From the IMG/VR virus record IMGVR_UViG_3300028416_000004, positions 62,001 to 126,000 of that record: 64,000 bases of DNA; one strand, 5' to 3'. The notes beneath the pieces are model-generated. The model saw only the letters and a list, made by a program, of their open reading frames with translations, had not been told where the DNA came from and ran no database searches. A program made the translations under genes and the position numbers. This DNA comes from a virus. Positions 10,419-40,554 of the stretch are shown here, piece after piece; position 1 is the stretch's first letter, and each line of letters opens with the position of its first letter.

Positions 10419-12053
10419 CTAAATACATTCCATATAATTATCACCTAAAGAATAATCAATTTCAAACACCATATCATTATATTTTGATAATATTTTTTGA
10501 ATTTCTCCTATTAAATTTAACTCTTCTGGATGTATATCTAAAACAAAAGAATCAAACACTTGAAACATAAATGATGACTTGTGACTTTCTAGCCATTTTT
10601 TTAATTCATTTAATTTATCTACCACTATTTCTGCAGCTGTAGATTGAACGTAATTATTAAATGCAGCATATGTCTTATTAGGTTTTATTAAAGTACCAAA
10701 AGGGTTTATTATATACCCCAATTCTTTATAAACATTATTAATATAATCAGAAGTATTTAAGATTGGATTTAAAAATTCTTTTATATTATTTAAAGCTTCC
10801 TCTACATTGATGCCTTCTATTTTAGAAATTAAACTTTTTATTAACGTATCACCTCCTCCATACAATATAGCATGATTAATGTCCTTTGCAACTTTTCTAT
10901 GAAAAGATGTTACTTCAACACTTCCTCCCAACATAGCTTTAGCTGTATTGTAATGCAAATCAGAGTTCATATTTTTAATTATAAATTCTTCATCTCTAGA
11001 TAAGTACATAGATAACCTTGTTTCAAAAGACTTATAATCAAATACTACAATTTTACCACCTTTATGTCTGGGGATAATTTCTTTTCTTATAGGACTATCT
11101 TTAGGTATCATTTGTGGATTAAACGAATCTACACAATTTATCCTACCAGTTATAGTTCTTTTATCTGAATATCTTAACATTATATATTTCTTATCATTTT
11201 CCCAAGTGCTCCTTACTCCTTCTGGAATTTTAAAATTTGAATTAAAATATATTTTATTTGTAGATAACCAAGAAGTTACTTTATCTTTAACTGTTTGCCT
11301 TATACAAGAATTTAACTCATCTTTAGTTAGAGTGTGTTTACTTATTATGTCATTCATCATCATAGGTATAAACCTATAAACATCTTTATTTAAAAAGATT
11401 TTTATAAAATCTTTAGGTTCTATATGATTAGAATATTTAGACCAAAAAACATTTTCCAAAGTCATAACATTTCTAACTTCATCGACATAAACATATTTAA
11501 TAATATTTTGATAACTAAATAAAGTACATTCTATTTTATTGATTAATCCTGTAAAAATCTTCTTATAATCTTTGCCTACATATTCTAAACTAGAAACACT
11601 TATAGCATAAGTATTTGAATCATTGTAAATATAGCATACATTTTTATGAAAATATATAAAAGACCTAGTTTTATTATTTATATTATTTAGAAAAAAATCT
11701 CTTATCTCTCCATCTAAAATAGCATCATAAGTTATAATGTTTTTATTGAAAAACTTTTTCATAGAAAATTCAAGAAACATTTTGATGTCTGTTTTGTTTT
11801 TTCCATCCTTTTCTGTTAAACTAAAAGTCCAAAATAAATTATCTGATATTTTAGGATTATCAATAGATTGTTCTGGGAAAATTTCTCTAACTTTATTCCA
11901 ACCTATTATTAAAGTAGGTAAATCTTGCTCTTCTGTAAAACTAATAGTTTCTATTAACTCTAAAGCAAAATTATCATAATGGACATTTATATACTCCAAA
12001 TCATCAGAAGAATAAGGGAGTATTTTACAAATTTTTATCAAACTATTAAGCAT
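10419..12053 (-). CDS. Family A-like DNA polymerase with altered motif C
   Basis: The 544-residue protein carries the three polymerase motifs of family A in its C-terminal half: motif A VFDYKSFETRL with Asp339, motif B HRKVAKDINHAILYG (Arg386, Lys390, Tyr398), and motif C FQVFDSFVLDI with Asp501. In motif C the usual His-Asp-Glu reads Phe-Asp-Ser. GRINCVDSFNPQMIP and QSTAAEIV are also family A landmarks. The first 270 residues do not show DEDD exonuclease motifs and are not recognised. The start codon lies only 4 nt after a TATATTTG box, so the transcript may be leaderless. A DnaE polymerase is encoded elsewhere in the window, so this enzyme may have an accessory role such as gap filling or repair. 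Confidence 0.85.
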   Translation of the reverse strand: MLNSLIKICKILPYSSDDLEYINVHYDNFALELIETISFTEEQDLPTLIIGWNKVREIFPEQSIDNPKISDNLFWTFSLTEKDGKNKTDIKMFLEFSMKKFFNKNIITYDAILDGEIRDFFLNNINNKTRSFIYFHKNVCYIYNDSNTYAISVSSLEYVGKDYKKIFTGLINKIECTLFSYQNIIKYVYVDEVRNVMTLENVFWSKYSNHIEPKDFIKIFLNKDVYRFIPMMMNDIISKHTLTKDELNSCIRQTVKDKVTSWLSTNKIYFNSNFKIPEGVRSTWENDKKYIMLRYSDKRTITGRINCVDSFNPQMIPKDSPIRKEIIPRHKGGKIVVFDYKSFETRLSMYLSRDEEFIIKNMNSDLHYNTAKAMLGGSVEVTSFHRKVAKDINHAILYGGGDTLIKSLISKIEGINVEEALNNIKEFLNPILNTSDYINNVYKELGYIINPFGTLIKPNKTYAAFNNYVQSTAAEIVVDKLNELKKWLESHKSSFMFQVFDSFVLDIHPEELNLIGEIQKILSKYNDMVFEIDYSLGDNYMECI

Positions 12054-30094: not shown

Positions 30095-30562
30095 ATGAAT
30101 GAAGAAGAAAAAAAGAAAAAAGTTAACTCAATTTTAAAACAAACTAAAAGAAAACTTTTAAAACCCAGAAACCAAATAAAGAAAATTAAATATTTACATG
30201 CTCAATCTTATAGGATGAGCAAAAATACAACTTGGCCTGAAAGAGAGTTTGAATCTATCCTCAAAGAAATGAATATAGAATATGAATCTCAAAAAATACT
30301 TAAAGGTAAGATATATGATTATTATATACCATCTGCTAATATGTTATGTGAAGTTGATGGTGATTATTATCATGGAAATGAAGAAAAATATGAAACTTTA
30401 AACGAAATGCAAAAAAAAGCGAAACAAAACGATAGATATAAAGATATCATTGCAAAAGGCATGGGTTACGGAATGTTTCGCATTTGGGAATCTGAACTTA
30501 AAAATAGTAGAGATTTAGCAAAAGAAAGAATAATAAACGAAATCTTAATTAAGAAACTCTAA
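30095..30562 (+). CDS. Vsr/DUF559-like endonuclease, possible free-standing homing endonuclease
   Basis: A 155-residue protein of the PD-(D/E)xK-type Vsr/DUF559 superfamily. The N-terminal 45 residues are very basic, suited to DNA binding. The nuclease core follows: a glutamate in WPEREFE, Asp in IYDYYIP, and the segment LCEVDGDYYHGN with the E-x-D-G-x-x-H pattern, then a basic QNDRYKD helix and GMFRIWESEL. Vsr-like homing endonucleases are known from phages. It is one of only two plus-strand genes here and overlaps the 3' end of the intein-bearing helicase gene by 18 nt. Role in mobility is an inference. It could instead be a repair or host-DNA-degrading nuclease. Confidence 0.72.
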   Translation: MNEEEKKKKVNSILKQTKRKLLKPRNQIKKIKYLHAQSYRMSKNTTWPEREFESILKEMNIEYESQKILKGKIYDYYIPSANMLCEVDGDYYHGNEEKYETLNEMQKKAKQNDRYKDIIAKGMGYGMFRIWESELKNSRDLAKERIINEILIKKL

Positions 30563-33500
30563 TTCAAATTCAGTTGTTTCATAATGTTCTTTCAAAAAGT
30601 ATTGTAAAGAAGTTTGTCTTATATTTGGGTCTATATTATCTATACTTCTCTTAAACGCTTCTCTTTCGCCTATTAAAATTCCCATTTTTTTTGCTCTAGT
30701 AAGTCCTGTGTAAATAAGATTTCTATAAAGCATTATATAATGTTGGTTTAATATCGGAATTATTACTATCTTAAACTCACTACCTTGAGATTTGTGTATA
30801 GTTATAGCATATGCTAATTCTATTTCTATTATATTAGACCTTTCATATCGTACAAGTTTAGTTTTTTTAGAGTCACCATAATTAATAATCAAACTATAAT
30901 CTTTAGTATCAATTTTAGTTATATAACCAATATCACCATTAAAAACATTTAAATCATAATTGTTAGCTGTTTGTATAACCCTATCTCCTTCTCTAAAAGT
31001 TCTTTCTCCTATAGTTATTTCTTTTTTGTTTTCAGATTTTGGATTTACAGCAACTTGTACTCTCTTATTAATTTCTTTAGTTCCAACAGAACCTTTATTC
31101 ATAGGTGTTAATATTTGTATTTCATTATCTTTACCCATATATTTTTCTATGGTTTCACTATATAATTTAACTATCATATCAATAGCATTCAAGCCATATT
31201 TAAGTGTTGAATTTGGCTCATTTTGATATTCTAAATTCATAGATGAATCAATAAACATACAATCACTTCCATCTTTCCACATTTTAGGATTTGAAATTGG
31301 AGTTTCTACATTTGGAGTTTCACCTTTATTTATAGTATGTGCATAAGTAATAATTTTTGATTTTTCAGCTTGTCTAAAAACTTTTTTCAAACTAAACACC
31401 TTAACACATTGACTATTAATTAAATCTGATATTAAATTTCCTGGGCCAACAGATGGTAATTGGTCTTTATCTCCAACTAAAACAATTTGTGTATTTGGCG
31501 ATATAGCTCTAAAAAATGAAGAAGCTAACCTAATATCAATCATAGAGGATTCATCTAAAATAATAAAATCACATTCCAGCATATCTTTTTCAGATTTTCT
31601 AAAATTACCATTACCTGCATCCCATTTTAATAATCTATGTATTGTTTTTGATTCTGCACCTATAACTTCAGACATTCTTTGAGCTGCCCTTCCTGTTGGT
31701 GCTGCTAAAAGTACTTTTTTACCTAAAGATAAAAGTATATCATAAATAAACTTTACAGTAGTGGTATTATGAGTAACGACATAATTACCTAAAACAAATC
31801 TTTTATTTCCATCAATTTCAAAACCGTAATAATCTCCTTCTCCTTTATCTACCAACTTAAAACCAGAATGTAAATGATTTTTATTTTGATTATTCATTGC
31901 TTTTTTTCGCTTAATTTTAACAGGTACTCTTTGTAAATTTCCACTTATATTAATTCTATAAACTTTACAACTATAATAACTACCATCTTCTCTTTTCATT
32001 GTAGCAATCTTATCGGTTATAGATGTTTTAAAACCAAGACTAGAACTTAACTCAAATATATCATATGCTAATTTTTTATTTTTTTGAGTTATTTCATATA
32101 TACCACTACCAGTTAAATGACCATCCGAATCTATCAAACCTGCAAGTAAACTTAAACGATGCTCCCTGGAGTTAATTAGATGCTCATTAGGTATATGCTT
32201 ATTATTAAATACATTTTCTTTTTTTAATAATGAATATAAAGACTTTTTTCCACCTGTAACAATTAAACTAGAAGCTCTATTAAGATTTTCTCTTAATCTA
32301 AATTTATAACCATTGTTATCTGACCATTCTCTAGAATAATCTATTATTTCTTTATCTATATTTGTTATTATAAATGTTTTTGAGTTACTATGACCATCAC
32401 CTAACCACAAACCTAACAAATAGGGGTCTAAATAAGTTTTCTTTAAAGGATATTCAACTCCTACACTATACTGCATTAATCTATGTCTGTTTCTTTTACT
32501 AACTTTCAAATAATCCTTAATAGATATATCTACAACATCACCTTGAGAATATTTTTTACCATTAATTGTTATATCTCTCTCTTTAGTGTTATAAACAAGA
32601 GAAAGTATATGAGATTCATTACATCCCCAAATTTTTCCATCATTAGAAATTACATCATACATTCTCTCTTTACCTCTCGCTAAACTCAAAACTTTTCTTG
32701 GAGTAGAATCATCTCCCATTAACAAATCTCCTTCTTTAATGTTTTCCACCTTATTTTTAGTCCCATCAAACATCAAAACAGTTGTACCCTTCTTTAAACA
32801 TTTGCCAACGCCTGGACCTCCTGTTAAAATAGACAAACCATTAGAAACAACTCCTATAACTGAATCATATTGTTCTTCACTAAGTTTTATTTTAGAATTA
32901 GACAACATTTTATCTAACCTTTCTTTTAAATCACTTGTATTGTTAGCATATCTTTTCTTTGATAATCTAACCACCTTTTCTGCTACATACATTTCATCAT
33001 AATACAAATCTCTAGAATAAAACCTTTTTTGTTCTCTTATTTTATCTTTAGAGAAATTTATAGATACTATCTTCTCTTCTAATTCCTCTTTATTTAAAAT
33101 ATATTCTATTAATGTATTAACTTCAATTCCAATTAATTTCCTAACTCTTTCTTTTGTTTGTTTTTCAGTTAAATAACAGTGTCCATCAGATTGATTATTA
33201 GATAAAATATGATGTACAGCTGCAGTAACTCTTTCTTCACTTTTTTCATTGAAACCTAAACTCATAGCTAACTTATCAGCCATTGAAAATCCAAACCCAA
33301 CTATATCTGTAGCCAATCTATATGGATTATTTTTTAAAGTTGAAATAGAATCTATACCATACTCTTTGTAAATTTTAACAGCCGAAGAAGTGGCAACCAT
33401 ATGGTCTTGCAAGAAAATCATAATATTATTCATTTCCCTATTTTCTTTCCAACTCTCCTTAAGCACTTGTAATTTACTCCTATTTATTCCCTCTACTTCA

Positions 33501-33880
33501 ATTATTCTATCAATGTTATTCCTAAAAATATCTAAAGCTTCATCACCGAAATAATTAACTATCTTTTTAGCTGTAACAGGTCCTATCCCTGGAAAAAATC
33601 CTGAACTTAAATACTTAACAAGAGATTCTGTTGTTGCTGGAGGCATTTCTTGACAAGAGTTAGTATTAAATTGTTTTCCAAACCTAGCATGTTTAGACCA
33701 ATAACCTTCAAATTTCATTGTAACACCTTCAAATACTTTTGGTTGATTTATTGTTACGGTTATATTATCTTTAATGTCTTTATTATCAACAACTTCAACA
33801 CTCAAAACTCCATAACCATTAATTGGATTATGAAACTTAACTCTTCTTATAATCCCAACAAAGGAAGTTATATTATCCAT
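30545..33880 (-). CDS. RecD2/Dda-type SF1 helicase interrupted by an intein
   Basis: The 1111-residue precursor contains a 345-residue intein; the spliced helicase would have 766 residues, normal for RecD2. The N-terminal region has an OB-like start (SFVGIIRRVKFHNP), a helix-hairpin-helix pair (GFFPGIGPVTAKKIVNYFG) and YRLATDIVGFGFSMADKLA. Helicase motifs are motif I GGPGVGK joined after splicing to TTT, motif Ia LLAAPTGRAAQRM, motif II FIILDESSMID, motif III VLVGDKDQLPSVGPG, motif V/VI ELAYAITIHKSQGSEF and YTGLTRAKK. It moves 5' to 3' on ssDNA by family knowledge. In this phage it may drive replication fork or recombination steps. The intein lies within the Walker A loop, so the precursor is inactive. 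Confidence 0.92.
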   Translation of the reverse strand: MDNITSFVGIIRRVKFHNPINGYGVLSVEVVDNKDIKDNITVTINQPKVFEGVTMKFEGYWSKHARFGKQFNTNSCQEMPPATTESLVKYLSSGFFPGIGPVTAKKIVNYFGDEALDIFRNNIDRIIEVEGINRSKLQVLKESWKENREMNNIMIFLQDHMVATSSAVKIYKEYGIDSISTLKNNPYRLATDIVGFGFSMADKLAMSLGFNEKSEERVTAAVHHILSNNQSDGHCYLTEKQTKERVRKLIGIEVNTLIEYILNKEELEEKIVSINFSKDKIREQKRFYSRDLYYDEMYVAEKVVRLSKKRYANNTSDLKERLDKMLSNSKIKLSEEQYDSVIGVVSNGLSILTGGPGVGKCLKKGTTVLMFDGTKNKVENIKEGDLLMGDDSTPRKVLSLARGKERMYDVISNDGKIWGCNESHILSLVYNTKERDITINGKKYSQGDVVDISIKDYLKVSKRNRHRLMQYSVGVEYPLKKTYLDPYLLGLWLGDGHSNSKTFIITNIDKEIIDYSREWSDNNGYKFRLRENLNRASSLIVTGGKKSLYSLLKKENVFNNKHIPNEHLINSREHRLSLLAGLIDSDGHLTGSGIYEITQKNKKLAYDIFELSSSLGFKTSITDKIATMKREDGSYYSCKVYRINISGNLQRVPVKIKRKKAMNNQNKNHLHSGFKLVDKGEGDYYGFEIDGNKRFVLGNYVVTHNTTTVKFIYDILLSLGKKVLLAAPTGRAAQRMSEVIGAESKTIHRLLKWDAGNGNFRKSEKDMLECDFIILDESSMIDIRLASSFFRAISPNTQIVLVGDKDQLPSVGPGNLISDLINSQCVKVFSLKKVFRQAEKSKIITYAHTINKGETPNVETPISNPKMWKDGSDCMFIDSSMNLEYQNEPNSTLKYGLNAIDMIVKLYSETIEKYMGKDNEIQILTPMNKGSVGTKEINKRVQVAVNPKSENKKEITIGERTFREGDRVIQTANNYDLNVFNGDIGYITKIDTKDYSLIINYGDSKKTKLVRYERSNIIEIELAYAITIHKSQGSEFKIVIIPILNQHYIMLYRNLIYTGLTRAKKMGILIGEREAFKRSIDNIDPNIRQTSLQYFLKEHYETTEFELEFLN
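31766..32800 (-). mobile_element. Full-length LAGLIDADG intein in the helicase Walker A loop
   Basis: Precursor residues 361-705. The first residue is Cys1 (block A CLKKGTTVLM) and the last two are His-Asn (VVTHN), followed by Thr as the first C-extein residue. A block B-type His is in NESHILSL. Two LAGLIDADG signatures are visible: LLGLWLGDGH (about intein 128-137) and LLAGLIDSDGHL (about 218-229). Both keep the acidic residue, so the homing endonuclease may be active. Extein joining gives GGPGVGK-TTT, a perfect Walker A. Confidence 0.93.
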
Positions 33881-35589: not shown

Positions 35590-36063
35590 GAAAATAAATT
35601 AATTTTAGGTTTTGAAAACACAAAAGAACTATTTAGTTCTATTCTTGGATTAAAAAATTCTTTCATAAATTTCCTATTAGCTATGATTACAGCCTCAACT
35701 TCATTTATTACTCAATACATTTGGGATGATGCATCAGCTGTATATTTTATGTTATTCTTAATTATTGTAGATGCTTCCACTGGAATATGGAAATCTATAA
35801 AATATAGAACTTTTAGTAGTAGTAAGTTACCTAGAGTTTTAGTTATCTCAATAATATATGTTTTAATGCTTGCTATTAGTTGGAACGCTGCAAAACACTC
35901 AACTTTATTCATTTGGTTACCTGGAATGGTTTATGGAGGTCTTATTGGAACTCCATTAGTGTCAATATACGAAAACTTTGCAGAATTGGGATATGTACCA
36001 AAAGGTTTATTGTATGATATTAAAGAAAAAATAAAACATTACTTCAACAAAAAGCAAAATTAA
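35584..36063 (+). CDS. Phage holin
   Basis: A 159-residue membrane protein of the phage holin 4-type family, by the landmark DASTGIWKSIKYRTFSSSKLPR between two hydrophobic segments. Membrane stretches are FINFLLAMITASTSFITQYIW, AVYFMLFLIIV, VLVISIIYVLMLAISWNAA and LFIWLPGMVYGGLIG. The C-terminus is basic (KEKIKHYFNKKQN). I chose the ATG at 35584 over an upstream TTG at 35539, which would add an unlikely Asn/Lys-rich head. It is a lone plus-strand gene between two minus-strand units; its stop overlaps the DnaE C-part stop by 2 nt. By family it opens the inner membrane to end infection. Confidence 0.78.
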   Translation: MKENKLILGFENTKELFSSILGLKNSFINFLLAMITASTSFITQYIWDDASAVYFMLFLIIVDASTGIWKSIKYRTFSSSKLPRVLVISIIYVLMLAISWNAAKHSTLFIWLPGMVYGGLIGTPLVSIYENFAELGYVPKGLLYDIKEKIKHYFNKKQN

Positions 36064-38333
36064 GATATTTTTCTAAATTGACAACCATCTTGAAACTTTA
36101 ACCAACCTTGTTCTTTTTTGAATTTAGTTATATATATACTTCCCTCTTCAATTAAATCACTTATTCTATCATAAGCATCAGCCCAAACGACCATCTTAAC
36201 CACAGAACCTCCATCACTCAACTCTAAAGACCAATATTTTTTACCTTTTATAGAATACTTTTCTTGAACACCCTTTATTACAAAATAATAGTATTTATTT
36301 GGATTCTCAAATTCCGTTACAGGTTCTATATTAAAATCATATTTATCCATAAAATCTTGCTTTAACTTAGATATCTTATTAAACAAATTCAAATCTAAAC
36401 TACAAACTTTTATAAAATCTTTATATTTAACCTCTTCAGGTGTTGGTTCATATTTATCTTTTAAGTTTTCTTCAATAATATCAAATCTATTTTGTCCAAA
36501 CAAATCCATTTGCATAGTATTACTTTTCATTTTATACTTACGAAATTCCATTAACTCTTCTCTTGAACTAGACCAATCATCAAAAACACCAGCATTTAAA
36601 CAAGCTTCAAAGTTAGCTTTATTAAATTTACTAAATTGATGCATAAAAAACTTATCTTTATCAATGTCAGATACCCCAATAGACTGAAGCTCTTCAAATG
36701 CTATCTCACCCATTCCATTAATGCTAGAAAAGCCCATAAGTATAGTGTTTTCGTCTAACATTCCCCATTCCCATTTAGATTTTCTGTTGGGGGGTAAAAT
36801 CTTTATACCTTTTGTAAAAGATGTCATAATAGCTGAAGATAACCAAGATTCATCATCTTTAGCGTGATTCAATAAAGCAGTATAAAACTCTGTAGGGTAA
36901 TATCTTTTCATATACAAAGTTTGCATCGCAACATAAGAATAACTTACTGAGTGACTTCTGTTGAACGAATATCCCAAATACTTAACTAACCACTCCTCTA
37001 TATCTTTAACTTCATTCTCTTCTAAACCTTTCGCTTTACAACCCTCTTTAAATTTATCCCAAAGTTTTAAATATTCTTTATAATTCTTATTTGAAGATTC
37101 ACTTTCTTCCAACTCTTCTCCAGATAATGTCTTTTTTATAACCTTAGAAGCTTTATCCATAACTTTTCTTAAATTATCACCTTCCCCTAAAGACATTCCA
37201 GCCAATTCATGAGCAATAAACATTAATTGCTCTTGAAAAATTAATACTCCATTTGTATTTCTTAATAAAGGCTCTAAAGATGGATGAACTAAATCAATAG
37301 ACTCTGGGCTTTTTTTATTCCTTATATACTCCTCATGAGCACCTACACCCATAGGGCCTGGTCTATATAATGCATTGGCAGCAACCATTTCTTCAAAGTT
37401 TTCTGTATGCATATTTTTTATAAGCTTAGACATTCCTTCGGATTCAAACTGAAATACTCCTTGATTATTACCACTTCTTAACTCTTCAAAAAGTTCAGGA
37501 TTATCTAAATCAACATATTTAACTTCTTCAGAAATATCTATACCTCTATTTTCTTTTACTAATTTAATGGATTGTTTTAAAACGTTTAAAGTAGTCAAAT
37601 TAAGTCTGTCTAACTTTAGTATTCCCAAGTCAGACAAATCTTTACCACTACCAGATTCTTGAAAACCAGATACAGTAACACCTTTTACTATATTTACTGG
37701 CATATATTCCCAAACTGGCCCTGGTGTAATAACTATACCAGCAGCATGTTTACCTAAATTTCTAACTTGACCTTGTAGAGTTAAAGTGGTATCTATAATT
37801 TTTTTATTTGATGGATTTTGTATCCAACTTTTGACTACTTCAGATGATTCTGGTGAATTTGGATGTTCTCTTAACCAATCTTTTAAGTCTCCTTCATATT
37901 TCATAAAAGATTTTGGCATTTCTTTAGTTACAGCAAAAACATTCGAATCAAAACCTGCATCTTGACCAAAAGCTTTAGCCACATCTTTAAGGCACCCTTT
38001 TTCGTTAAAAGTAGAAAATGTAATTACAGGAAAAACACACTCTTTTCCATATTTATTATAAAGAAACTCATCAGTTTTAACATCTGAACCAGTTTCGAAG
38101 TCTATATCAATATCAGGAGGAGAATTTCTAGCTGGATTTAAAAATCTCTCAAAATATAAATCAAACCTTAAAGGGTCAATTTTCGTAATATCAAGACACC
38201 ATGAAAGAAGACTTCCTGCTGCAGAATTGTGTACACCTATTCCCTCAATATTATAAGAATGTGTTTCTTCAACAGTTAAATCATGAACTTTACCTTTGTA
38301 ATTTTTAAATTTTCTACTTTTTAGTTTTGCCAT
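36060..38333 (-). CDS. dnaE: Split DnaE, C-terminal part, preceded by a C-intein
   Basis: 757 residues. Residues 1-36 are a C-intein (block F KVHDLTVEETHSYNIEGIGVHN-type, final His35-Asn36), then Ser37 opens the C-extein SAAGSLLSWCLD. The palm continues with FERFLNPARN and PPDIDIDFE, whose Asp76 and Asp78 are the family C catalytic pair; the third Asp is Asp242 in LKLDRLNLTTL. Further family landmarks are ALYRPGPMG, LIFQEQLMFIAHELAG, and YSFNRSHSVSYSYVAMQTLYMK. The C-terminal 90 residues look like an OB fold. The part lacks PHP and exonuclease domains, so it needs the partner gene 121 nt upstream. Intein features show joining would occur after translation. Confidence 0.93.
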   Translation of the reverse strand: MAKLKSRKFKNYKGKVHDLTVEETHSYNIEGIGVHNSAAGSLLSWCLDITKIDPLRFDLYFERFLNPARNSPPDIDIDFETGSDVKTDEFLYNKYGKECVFPVITFSTFNEKGCLKDVAKAFGQDAGFDSNVFAVTKEMPKSFMKYEGDLKDWLREHPNSPESSEVVKSWIQNPSNKKIIDTTLTLQGQVRNLGKHAAGIVITPGPVWEYMPVNIVKGVTVSGFQESGSGKDLSDLGILKLDRLNLTTLNVLKQSIKLVKENRGIDISEEVKYVDLDNPELFEELRSGNNQGVFQFESEGMSKLIKNMHTENFEEMVAANALYRPGPMGVGAHEEYIRNKKSPESIDLVHPSLEPLLRNTNGVLIFQEQLMFIAHELAGMSLGEGDNLRKVMDKASKVIKKTLSGEELEESESSNKNYKEYLKLWDKFKEGCKAKGLEENEVKDIEEWLVKYLGYSFNRSHSVSYSYVAMQTLYMKRYYPTEFYTALLNHAKDDESWLSSAIMTSFTKGIKILPPNRKSKWEWGMLDENTILMGFSSINGMGEIAFEELQSIGVSDIDKDKFFMHQFSKFNKANFEACLNAGVFDDWSSSREELMEFRKYKMKSNTMQMDLFGQNRFDIIEENLKDKYEPTPEEVKYKDFIKVCSLDLNLFNKISKLKQDFMDKYDFNIEPVTEFENPNKYYYFVIKGVQEKYSIKGKKYWSLELSDGGSVVKMVVWADAYDRISDLIEEGSIYITKFKKEQGWLKFQDGCQFRKIS
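38226..38333 (-). other. C-intein of the split DnaE intein
   Basis: Codons 1-36 of the DnaE C-part gene. The segment begins MAKLKSRKFKNYKGK and ends GIGVHN before Ser+1. About 36 residues is the normal size of natural C-inteins. The His before Asn and the Thr-x-x-x-T-H block F pattern suggest it can splice. Confidence 0.92.
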
Positions 38334-38454
38334 TATTATTTTCTTTATGTTCTTGTTTTGCTTTTCTATTTTATTAATTAATCAAAAATTTCACAAACTA
38401 AACATATTATATAAATCATAAACGAATAATTAATTAAAAGATTTTCTCATAATT

Positions 38455-40554
38455 CTAATATTTATTTATATCAACAATATCATCTTCTTCAGTTAAATTT
38501 TTAGCTTCCACCCACCCACGATTTTCAGTAAGAATTTCATGGTCAAGAGTACATTCTATCACTCTACCATCATCAAATTTAAGTTCAATAATCTCTTCTT
38601 GAATATCATACTCCAATGTATCAATAACTTTTCTTTCATCTCCGAATGCATCAATTACCTTATCTCCAATTTCAATTGTATCTATTGGAACATACATTCC
38701 ATCAGCCATTTTTACTCTACTTCCTGGCAAAAAACAACCCCTCCCAGGGCCAACTTCTATATCATTATCAGCACAAAATCTTATTAATTCCCAAACAACC
38801 AGAAAATAATCTAACATCTTCTTATCTCTGATGACATCCAATTCATAATCTAATCTCTTTCTATATTCTTCAATTTTCTTTTCATCTATTTTTATTGGAC
38901 CTTTCTTTTGATATAAACTAAGTTTTTGGTTTAATTTGGCATGCGAAAGTCTTCTAATTATCTCTTCAGTATCTTTTGTTTTAAAAAATTCAAAAACATC
39001 GTTAGTAGGTTTATATTGAGGATATTTTTCTACATTAGTTTCAAAATCAAAATTACATAAAGAAGATATTTTTTCACTATTAATCATACATATTCTAACA
39101 AAATCTTCTTCATAATCATATGCAAAGGATTCATTCATTTCGAATATATCAGATTCTGAAGGATAATACATATCTCCATTTTCTTTTGTTCTAGCTTTTT
39201 TGATAGGTCTTTTTTGATTAATTGATATCAATACATCTTGAAGAACTTTTTCATTCTTTTTAGGAAAGTAAACATCGTTTGAAACAATAATAGCCATATT
39301 ATACTTGTTAGACATATTTATAATAAATTTATTATATTGTCTTTGTATCTCATTGTCTTCTAGAGATATTTCGGCTATATAATTTCTTCTTCCGAAAAGG
39401 TTAAGCATTTTAACTAAATATTCTTCAGCTTGTCTGTATTTACCCATTTGTAAATATTTAGATATAGTACCATGTTTTGAACTGGTAGTTAATATCAAAC
39501 CTTCTTTTCCTTCTAAAATCCACTTAGTTTTTATTCTTGGAACTCTATAAAAACCTTCAGCAAATGAAAGATAATTGATTTTATTTATATTAACATATCC
39601 TTCATCATTTAAAACTATTATTTTTTGCAAAACATTAATATCTTGCTCTTTTGGTTCATATTGACCACCTATACTATCATTTAAAAAGAATTCACAACCA
39701 ATTATAGGTTTAATATCTTTTGATTTACATTTTTGATAAAACGAAAAAGCACTAGATAAACTACCTTTATCAGTTAAAACTAAAGTTTTATGATTATACT
39801 CTTTAGCCATACTTATATAATCACTTGTGGAGCCAGCACCTTCTAAAACAGAATGATAAGTATGTAAGCCGAAATTAACCATTGAATGGTCTATTGGAAC
39901 AGAGCCATTTTTTTGCTTCCATTTATTTATAATTTCTAATTCTGAACTTTTTGAGTCTAAAAATTCTAAAACATCTTCTCCAAACCCTAATGCACCAACT
40001 CTTCTTAACTCAAAAAAACATTTAGCTAAAGCTTCAACGTCAATTAAAGCATCGTGGGCATCTTCAAATGTTTTATTAAAAAGTATTTTATGGAGTTCTG
40101 TTAAAGTTGGTGGTTTTAAACCGTTTTTGCCTTGTATTCTACAAAAGTTTACTGTTGAATTCATAGTACATATATGAGTAATGTCTCTCATATAATTTTT
40201 CATGTTCAACCTATAAAATTCACATGCAGTTACCTTGTTATCGAAACTAATATTATGAGCTACTAAAAATTTTGATTTCTCTATATCTTTAATAAACTCA
40301 TTTAAAGCTTGTTCTAAAGGTACACCTTCAAAGTTGGCTCTTTCATTAGTTATTCTATGAATCCTAATACTTTCTTCAGGTATTATAAATTTATCTGGCT
40401 TTATGATTCTGTTATTTGAACCAATCTCCACACCATTAATATCGTAAACCTTCCATGCTAACTGAACTATTCTTGGCCAATTATTAACATCGGTTATGGG
40501 AGCACTGAAATCTTCTGGCAACCCTGTTGTTTCTGTATCAAATATTATAAACAT
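38455..40554 (-). CDS. dnaE: Split DnaE, N-terminal part: exonuclease, PHP, partial palm and N-intein
   Basis: 699 residues from the ATG at 40554. Residues 1-180 are a DEDDh proofreading exonuclease: FDTETTGL (Asp6, Glu8), VAHNISFDNK (Asp105), HDALIDVEAL (His167, Asp172). A PHP domain follows (about 225-460) with FGLHTYHSVLEGAG, TLVLTDKGSLSSAF and IKPIIGCEFFL, where several metal histidines are replaced. The palm begins near 540 and stops at EVGPGRG (residue 606). Residues 607-699 are the N-intein. An upstream TTG at 40563 lies inside the promoter box and is rejected. E. coli carries the exonuclease on a separate protein, DnaQ; here it is fused. The gene opens the polymerase transcription unit. 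Confidence 0.93.
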   Translation of the reverse strand: MFIIFDTETTGLPEDFSAPITDVNNWPRIVQLAWKVYDINGVEIGSNNRIIKPDKFIIPEESIRIHRITNERANFEGVPLEQALNEFIKDIEKSKFLVAHNISFDNKVTACEFYRLNMKNYMRDITHICTMNSTVNFCRIQGKNGLKPPTLTELHKILFNKTFEDAHDALIDVEALAKCFFELRRVGALGFGEDVLEFLDSKSSELEIINKWKQKNGSVPIDHSMVNFGLHTYHSVLEGAGSTSDYISMAKEYNHKTLVLTDKGSLSSAFSFYQKCKSKDIKPIIGCEFFLNDSIGGQYEPKEQDINVLQKIIVLNDEGYVNINKINYLSFAEGFYRVPRIKTKWILEGKEGLILTTSSKHGTISKYLQMGKYRQAEEYLVKMLNLFGRRNYIAEISLEDNEIQRQYNKFIINMSNKYNMAIIVSNDVYFPKKNEKVLQDVLISINQKRPIKKARTKENGDMYYPSESDIFEMNESFAYDYEEDFVRICMINSEKISSLCNFDFETNVEKYPQYKPTNDVFEFFKTKDTEEIIRRLSHAKLNQKLSLYQKKGPIKIDEKKIEEYRKRLDYELDVIRDKKMLDYFLVVWELIRFCADNDIEVGPGRGCFLPGSRVKMADGMYVPIDTIEIGDKVIDAFGDERKVIDTLEYDIQEEIIELKFDDGRVIECTLDHEILTENRGWVEAKNLTEEDDIVDINKY
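38458..38736 (-). other. N-intein of the split DnaE intein
   Basis: The last 93 codons of the N-part gene. Cys1 directly follows GPGRG, block A is CFLPGSRVKMADG, and block B shows T-x-x-H in ECTLDHEIL. The intein ends without any homing endonuclease domain and the gene stops. With the 36-residue C-intein the full mini-intein would be 129 residues. Confidence 0.93.

What the first reader, a model, noticed from the sequence alone, without database searches (positions are those of the whole stretch)
36060..40554. Replicative DNA polymerase DnaE broken inside the palm and rebuilt by a split intein
The N-part gene stops after a 93-residue N-intein that begins with Cys directly after EVGPGRG. The C-part gene, 121 nt downstream on the same strand, begins with a 36-residue C-intein ending GVHN, followed by SAAGSLL. 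In intact family C polymerases GPGRGSxAGS is continuous and lies just before the catalytic PDxDxDF. Thus the break is at an active-site-proximal point and neither half can polymerise. Trans-splicing would give about 606 + 721 = 1327 residues. The best-known natural DnaE split inteins, from cyanobacteria, sit elsewhere in the protein. Here the halves remain adjacent, which suggests that fracture happened by loss of a linker/endonuclease in place, without genome rearrangement.
Basis: partly seen in the sequence, partly recalled or inferred. Interest (0 to 1): 0.9.

Follow-up and report, generated by a model that had tools for sequence, protein, structure and literature searches.

The report
Phage DNA polymerase split by intein
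A giant phage makes its DNA polymerase as two separate proteins that a split, self-splicing intein should weld together in the active-site region, and related phages carry up to three such breaks in the same enzyme because these elements are mobile.

Summary
In a 232.5-kb phage record, a DnaE-type (family C) polymerase is encoded as exonuclease-PHP-palm' + 93-aa N-intein (38455-40554, minus strand) and, 121 nt downstream, 36-aa C-intein + 721-aa C-extein (36060-38333). The same split is in two other assemblies, and all three frames of the gap hold stops, so it is not a sequencing error. Every splicing motif is present, and the joined exteins (606+721) align without loss to intein-free relatives. 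The junction is E. coli G363/S364, 37 residues before catalytic D401. Trans-splicing itself is inferred, not shown.

The larger story lies in 57 distinct relatives. Three unrelated inteins occupy three palm/finger sites of this polymerase in patchy combinations: mostly as split cassettes with a predicted endonuclease gene between the halves, sometimes as contiguous mini-inteins. One relative has all three, so its DnaE is in four pieces. A nearly identical sister of the window phage carries an extra N-intein at site 3, next to four clustered silent changes, as expected of recent homing. The window's copy has lost its endonuclease.

It works like a 'fractured gene', a known kind. The DnaE palm allele, the multiple fractures and the split/contiguous alternation make it a new variant.

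The parts
38455..40554 (-). N-part gene: exonuclease + PHP + N-terminal palm + N-intein, 699 aa
   Evidence: ORF; Pfam PF02811 1.1e-27, PF07733 7.5e-14, PF00929 3e-13, PF14890 3.6e-7
40015..40548 (-). fused DnaQ-type 3'-5' exonuclease domain (RNase_T)
   Evidence: PF00929 3e-13, residues 6-183; phrog_192 'DNA polymerase exonuclease subunit' 4e-33; conserved in relatives
39367..39867 (-). PHP domain
   Evidence: PF02811
38458..38736 (-). N-intein, 93 aa (Cys1, block B TLDH, typical split position)
   Evidence: 88% identical to L019 copy
38334..38454 (-). gap between the two genes, 121 nt, no ORF, stops in all frames, no detectable endonuclease remnant
36060..38333 (-). C-part gene: C-intein + rest of palm, fingers, OB region, 757 aa
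   Evidence: Pfam PF07733 1.9e-46, PF17657 2.7e-45; PDB DnaE 2.6e-77
38226..38333 (-). C-intein, 36 aa, ends GVHN; next residue Ser (+1 nucleophile)
38097..38117 (-). catalytic PDIDIDF motif (first two catalytic Asp), 37 residues after the splice junction
   Evidence: alignment to E. coli DnaE, S364 and D401
37608..37610 (-). third catalytic Asp (E. coli D555)
   Evidence: alignment, LKLD/VKFD
38123..38124 (-). site 2 (NPARN/SPPDIDIDF), empty here; holds a split intein + endonuclease gene in relatives
36956..36957 (-). site 3 (GYSFNR/SHS), empty here; holds an N-intein in the near-identical sister phage L017

Best explanation
The two genes encode halves of one family C DNA polymerase that are joined after translation by a naturally split intein. 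The 93-aa N-intein and 36-aa C-intein associate, fold into one HINT domain, and by the standard class 1 pathway (Cys1 acyl shift, transfer to Ser+1, Asn cyclisation) release themselves and leave a seamless ...GPGRG-SAAGS... bond in the palm. The split intein is a former homing element: in relatives the same cassette (N-intein gene - endonuclease gene - C-intein gene) still carries its endonuclease; in the window lineage the endonuclease is gone and only the splicing activity is maintained, because without it there is no complete polymerase. Shown here: gene anatomy, motifs, collinearity with intein-free relatives, HINT fold of a contiguous relative, purifying selection, patchy presence, conversion-like marks at site 3. 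Inferred: the splicing reaction, the endonuclease activity, and the order of events.
For: Anatomy and Pfam. Same split in three assemblies. Seamless alignment of spliced exteins at all junctions to relatives with that site empty, e.g. GSGRGSAAGS in L022 and GPGRGSAAGS in L027. N-intein profile hits NrdJ-1 split intein 9.7e-9 and other inteins. The contiguous 129-aa relative in L096 folds as HINT (pLDDT 94; Foldseek: Mtu RecA intein 2e-9, gp41-1 3.9e-9, NrdJ-1, Npu DnaE), and the window halves align to it end to end, with the break at the usual linker. Strong purifying selection on the intein, window vs L019: dN 0.066, dS 1.03; exteins dN 0.44-0.48. L042 has a 356-aa ORF filling the same gap, weakly matching PHROG 'endonuclease' (2.5e-6). 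Presence/absence needs about 5, 10 and 8 changes at sites 1, 2, 3 on a tree of 57 polymerases. Sister L017 has 2 scattered mismatches in about 10.9 kb but 4 silent ones in the last 10 nt before its site-3 N-intein.
Against: No splicing assay or mass spectrometry. No endonuclease remnant is detectable in the window's 121-nt gap, so its former presence rests on relatives. Gap endonucleases match only weakly and not to a solved homing endonuclease. dS between window and L019 inteins is near saturation, so recent transfer of intein 1 itself is not proven. L017's contig ends inside the insertion, so only its left junction is seen.
Confidence: 0.9

Rival explanations
1. The halves are not spliced: the intein pieces act only as a dimerisation clamp and the polymerase works as a non-covalent two-subunit enzyme.
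For: No splicing data. Terapinviruses (L004, L009) and Tenacibaculum phage Larrie (L007) do have DnaE in two genes without a recognisable complete split intein, so two-gene DnaE may exist without splicing.
Against: All splicing residues kept (Cys1, TxxH, HN, Ser+1) in every site-1 copy, and intein dN/dS about 0.06. The break lies in the palm next to the catalytic motif, unlike the Terapinvirus break outside the catalytic core.
Confidence: 0.05
2. The gene is a broken, decaying intein in a dying polymerase gene, with replication done by the family A polymerase also in the window.
For: A family A polymerase is encoded at 10419-12053 (PHROG DNA polymerase 2e-30).
Against: Both DnaE halves are full length with catalytic aspartates, collinear with relatives, and under purifying selection (dN/dS about 0.2-0.3 in exteins, 0.06 in intein).
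Confidence: 0.04
3. Sequencing or assembly error split a contiguous mini-intein like that of L096.
For: Contiguous versions exist at site 1 (L096) and site 3 (L093, L096, L100).
Against: Identical gap in three assemblies; stops in all three gap frames; own ATG for the C-part; the same split architecture with ORF-filled gaps in L042 and L019.
Confidence: 0.01

Closest known systems
Fractured genes with split inteins and free-standing endonucleases (Dassa et al. 2009, NAR 37:2560; not held in the library, described from memory and from citing papers PMC3653736, PMC6892783)
   Same: Phage replication gene broken in two by a split intein, halves adjacent on one strand, endonuclease gene in the gap (in relatives L042, L039, L075 and others), gaps with Vsr-like nucleases
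   Different: Window copy has no endonuclease; host gene is DnaE at GPGRG/S; up to three fractures in one gene; split and contiguous versions at the same site in one phage clade
Jumbo phage MIJ3 split PolB (PMC6892783) and Campylobacter phage CP21 / Aes123 PolB1 split inteins (PMC12707363)
   Same: Phage DNA polymerase broken by a typically split intein; in MIJ3 with an HNH endonuclease gene between the halves
   Different: Family B, not family C, polymerase; one fracture described
Cyanobacterial DnaE split intein (Ssp/Npu DnaE)
   Same: Family C polymerase, typical split (N ~100 aa, C ~36 aa), HINT fold
   Different: Halves far apart in the genome and +1 Cys (CFN) in cyanobacteria (established knowledge; PMC7765530 for separate genes); here adjacent, +1 Ser, palm site. 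Site 3 of the relatives lies three residues from the cyanobacterial site
Bacillus phage G gp329 and Lactococcus phages 949/P1048 DnaE inteins
   Same: Inserted at exactly the same GPGRG/S-type position of a phage DnaE
   Different: Contiguous (245 aa in G; LAGLIDADG-bearing in 949), about 33-36% identical
Salmonella phage S16 uvsW (gp114 / gp114.1 / gp115)
   Same: Closest N-intein in cultured phages by E-value (38% identity); three-gene layout of N-half, hypothetical gene and C-half
   Different: Helicase host gene, gap gene still present

Membership tests
Naturally split intein (typical split) | N-intein with Cys/Ser at 1 and block B TxxH; C-intein with block F and terminal Asn; Cys/Ser/Thr at +1 | tested here: met
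   CFLP..., CTLDHEIL, VHDLTVEETHSYNI, GVHN, +1 Ser
Naturally split intein (typical split) | Break at the usual endonuclease insertion point, N ~100, C ~35-40 aa | tested here: met
   93 + 36 aa, aligned to contiguous L096; definition from PMC12707363
Naturally split intein (typical split) | HINT fold | tested here: met
   for the contiguous homologue L096 (66% identical to the N-intein): pLDDT 94, Mtu RecA intein E 2e-9; not modelled for the window pair itself
Naturally split intein (typical split) | Trans-splicing activity | not testable with these tools
   needs expression or proteomics
Fractured gene with endonuclease gene between the halves | Host enzyme in two adjacent ORFs ending/starting with the intein halves | tested here: met
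Fractured gene with endonuclease gene between the halves | Free-standing endonuclease gene in the gap | tested here: not met
   window gap 121 nt, no ORF; met in relatives L042, L039, L075 and others. The window locus is therefore filed as an endonuclease-less relative, not a full member
Cyanobacterial DnaE split intein allele | Insertion at ...Y/CFNKSHS with halves far apart | tested here: not met
   junction at E. coli G363/S364; halves 121 nt apart
DnaE / family C polymerase | PHP, palm with three catalytic Asp, finger domain | tested here: met
EDxHD / Vsr-like homing endonuclease (site 2 and 3 gap genes in relatives) | Homology to solved Vsr or I-Bth0305I | tested here: inconclusive
   no significant PDB hit; weak Pfam MTES_1575/DUF559; PHROG homing endonuclease 5e-8

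The most novel reading that the evidence does not exclude
One polymerase is naturally assembled from up to four separately encoded polypeptides by three mutually unrelated split inteins acting on the same enzyme, including a 34-residue palm fragment carried between a C-intein and an N-intein (L019). The inteins home independently into the three most conserved catalytic motifs, and the same allele exists as split-with-endonuclease, split-without and contiguous forms, so that the life cycle of split inteins can be read within one phage clade.
Probability: 0.72. Interest if true: 0.78.

Novelty: new variant of a known kind. Interest (0 to 1): 0.63.

Why it matters
How split inteins arise and whether they remain mobile has rested on scattered examples. 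This clade offers intein-free, split-with-endonuclease, split-without-endonuclease and contiguous forms of the same alleles in one gene, plus a nearly identical pair of phages that differ by an insertion. It also supplies three sets of naturally co-occurring split inteins, likely orthogonal, that are useful for multi-part protein ligation, and raises the question of whether phage replication is timed by protein splicing.

Tried and rejected
Rfam scan for an intron in the gap: nothing. Search for remnants of the L042 or L019 gap in the window's 121 nt: scores at the level of shuffles. Close-relative scans by single protein found few loci; the extein alignment A1 was needed. The genome collection gave only bacterial DnaE at 40% identity or less, with no Cys-marked intein at the three sites in the 80 loci examined, 16 of them unresolved at some site. 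PDB profile searches with gap endonucleases gave no meaningful hit. 'Bacteriophage sp.' faecal records among the DnaE hits looked like ordinary bacterial chromosomal loci (three read) and were not used. I first read the 88% vs 51% identity of intein vs extein as proof of recent transfer of intein 1; the synonymous rates (1.03 vs 1.6-2.3, near saturation) do not carry that, so it is reported as strong constraint with possible transfer. The 2009 fractured-genes paper is not held, so whether DnaE was among its examples could not be checked.

Full report
What is there. The window is positions 62001-126000 of a 232,514-bp virus record. On its minus strand, 38455-40554 encodes 699 aa: an RNase_T/DnaQ-type exonuclease, a PHP domain, and the start of the DNA polymerase III alpha core up to ...IEVGPGRG, then CFLPGSRV...DIVDINKY and a stop. 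After 121 nt, 36060-38333 encodes MAKLKSRKF...GIGVHN followed by SAAGSLLSWC... and the rest of the polymerase. Against solved DnaE the first C-extein residue corresponds to E. coli S364; PDIDIDF to D401/D403; and LKLD to D555. The N-extein aligns up to the GPGRG motif. Thus the C-half holds all three catalytic aspartates and the N-half the first part of the palm.

Is it real? Contig 3300024359_000008 is identical over 14,271 nt; contig 3300048026_001485 has the same two frames and the same 121-nt gap. All three frames of the gap contain stops, and Rfam finds nothing in 30-42 kb. A single error could not join the frames. Genes in this phage generally lack a Shine-Dalgarno-like leader and start after A/T-rich sequence, and so does the C-part, so its separate translation is plausible.

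Is it an intein? Pfam Intein_splicing hits the N-part (3.6e-7), and, scanned on the whole record, both halves. A profile of four site-1 N-inteins hits the NrdJ-1 split intein (9.7e-9) and others in the PDB. A relative, L096, has a contiguous 129-aa mini-intein at the same place, 66% identical to the window's N-intein; the window halves align to it end to end, broken at the usual linker. Its AlphaFold2 model (pLDDT 94) matches the Mtu RecA intein, gp41-1, NrdJ-1 and Npu DnaE inteins. Between the window and L019 the intein has dN 0.066 and dS 1.03, against dN 0.44-0.48 in the exteins: it is kept under strong purifying selection, as expected if an essential product depends on it. That is not direct proof of splicing.

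The wider pattern. A profile of the exteins found 80 loci of related phage polymerases. Three sites are used: site 1 GPGRG/S, site 2 NPxRN/SPPDIDIDF directly before the catalytic motif, site 3 GYSFN(R/K)/SHS. The three inteins are only about 26% identical to each other. Among 57 distinct core sequences, site 1 is split in the window, L017, L042 and L019/L078 and contiguous in L096. Site 2 is split in eleven. Site 3 carries an N-intein ending in a stop or cut by a contig end in six, and is contiguous in L093, L096 and L100. Spliced exteins are collinear at each junction with relatives in which that site is empty. L019 has all three as split inteins: 607 + 34 + 393 + 322 aa of extein in four genes, the second a 164-aa protein with only 34 aa of polymerase between two half-inteins. 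The triple case rests on one contig. Five contigs (L022-L026; L023 is truncated), of which four are near-identical over 12.3 kb (1-2 differences), show the double case at sites 2 and 3.

Mobility. The gaps hold ORFs. At site 2 these are about 360-aa proteins with a conserved GDYWHCNP block; at site 3 about 320-aa proteins with NUMOD3-like and GDYFHCNP blocks; at site 1 in L042 a 356-aa protein. PHROG names related families homing endonuclease, HNH endonuclease or endonuclease. L019 has only fragments in its gaps, and the window has none at site 1. On the tree, presence/absence needs 5, 10 and 8 changes at sites 1, 2, 3. The site-1 figure would be 4 if the window and L017, left unresolved at the root, are sisters. 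Changes may be gains or losses. The clearest case is L017 against the window: leaving aside the ragged first 84 nt of the contig, two mismatches lie 399 and 77 nt before site 3, and then four lie at the third positions of the last four codons (Ser-Phe-Asn-Arg), all silent, directly before L017's site-3 N-intein. Such clustering is what co-conversion of flanking sequence during homing leaves. Only the left junction is seen, and the donor was not found in the viral collection.

How it most likely works. Shown: anatomy, motifs, fold of the contiguous homologue, selection, patchy distribution, conversion-like marks. Inferred: the two proteins associate through the intein halves and splice to a 1327-aa polymerase with its own proofreading domain; the cassette once spread by its endonuclease and has lost it in the window lineage.

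Compared with what is known. Phage genes fractured by split inteins with a nuclease gene between the halves are a described kind (Dassa et al. 2009, cited in PMC6892783 and PMC3653736; original not held). Polymerase cases exist in MIJ3 PolB and CP21/Aes123 PolB1. Salmonella phage S16 uvsW has the three-gene layout and the closest cultured-phage N-intein by E-value. Inteins at the same DnaE position, but contiguous, occur in Bacillus phage G and Lactococcus 949/P1048. PHROG families 13169 and 21652 match the window halves up to and from the intein ends, so halves like these were already in a reference set, though not named as split-intein products. The cyanobacterial DnaE split is a different allele; site 3 of the relatives lies three residues from it (position from established knowledge). 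I found no report of a polymerase fractured at two or three sites in the papers available here, but most subscription papers are not held.

Verdict. By itself the window locus is a new, endonuclease-less split-intein allele in a family C polymerase. With its relatives it is a new variant: a repeatedly fractured polymerase in which split inteins of three kinds come and go.

Noticed in passing
window 30545-33880 (-): RecD2-like helicase with a contiguous LAGLIDADG-bearing intein in the Walker A motif (GGPGVGK/C...HN/TTT).
   Followed up: partly
window 10419-12053 (-): A family A DNA polymerase fragment (PHROG DNA polymerase 2e-30) in addition to DnaE: this phage may have two polymerases.
   Followed up: no
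L084:3895-5754: A 620-aa ORF that looks like a DUF262/GmrSD-type protein (by eye, not searched) sits as a passenger next to the endonuclease gene between the two halves of DnaE.
   Followed up: no
L019:121-5484: TerL of the triply fractured phage appears to carry three contiguous inteins in one 1788-aa frame.
   Followed up: no
L007:3698-7278 and L006:3713-5446: Tenacibaculum phage Larrie has DnaE in two genes broken near the site-2 catalytic motif, with tails that look like degenerate intein halves lacking the starting Cys; Bacteroides phage BS-TP1 has a DnaE gene that ends at the same place with a similar tail, its second half not located. Possibly atypical split inteins or splicing-dead docking domains.
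   Followed up: no
L004:4992-8624 and L009:3992-7384: Gordonia phages Terapin and Suzy encode DnaE as two genes, broken before the catalytic core, without intein-like ends.
   Followed up: no
L008:3914-7886: Bacillus phage G DnaE has a contiguous intein at site 1 and is also interrupted downstream by a region holding a homing endonuclease gene, perhaps a group I intron.
   Followed up: no
window, minus-strand genes: No Shine-Dalgarno-like motif before the genes listed, only A/T-rich leaders, as in phages of Bacteroidota (host inference only).
   Followed up: no
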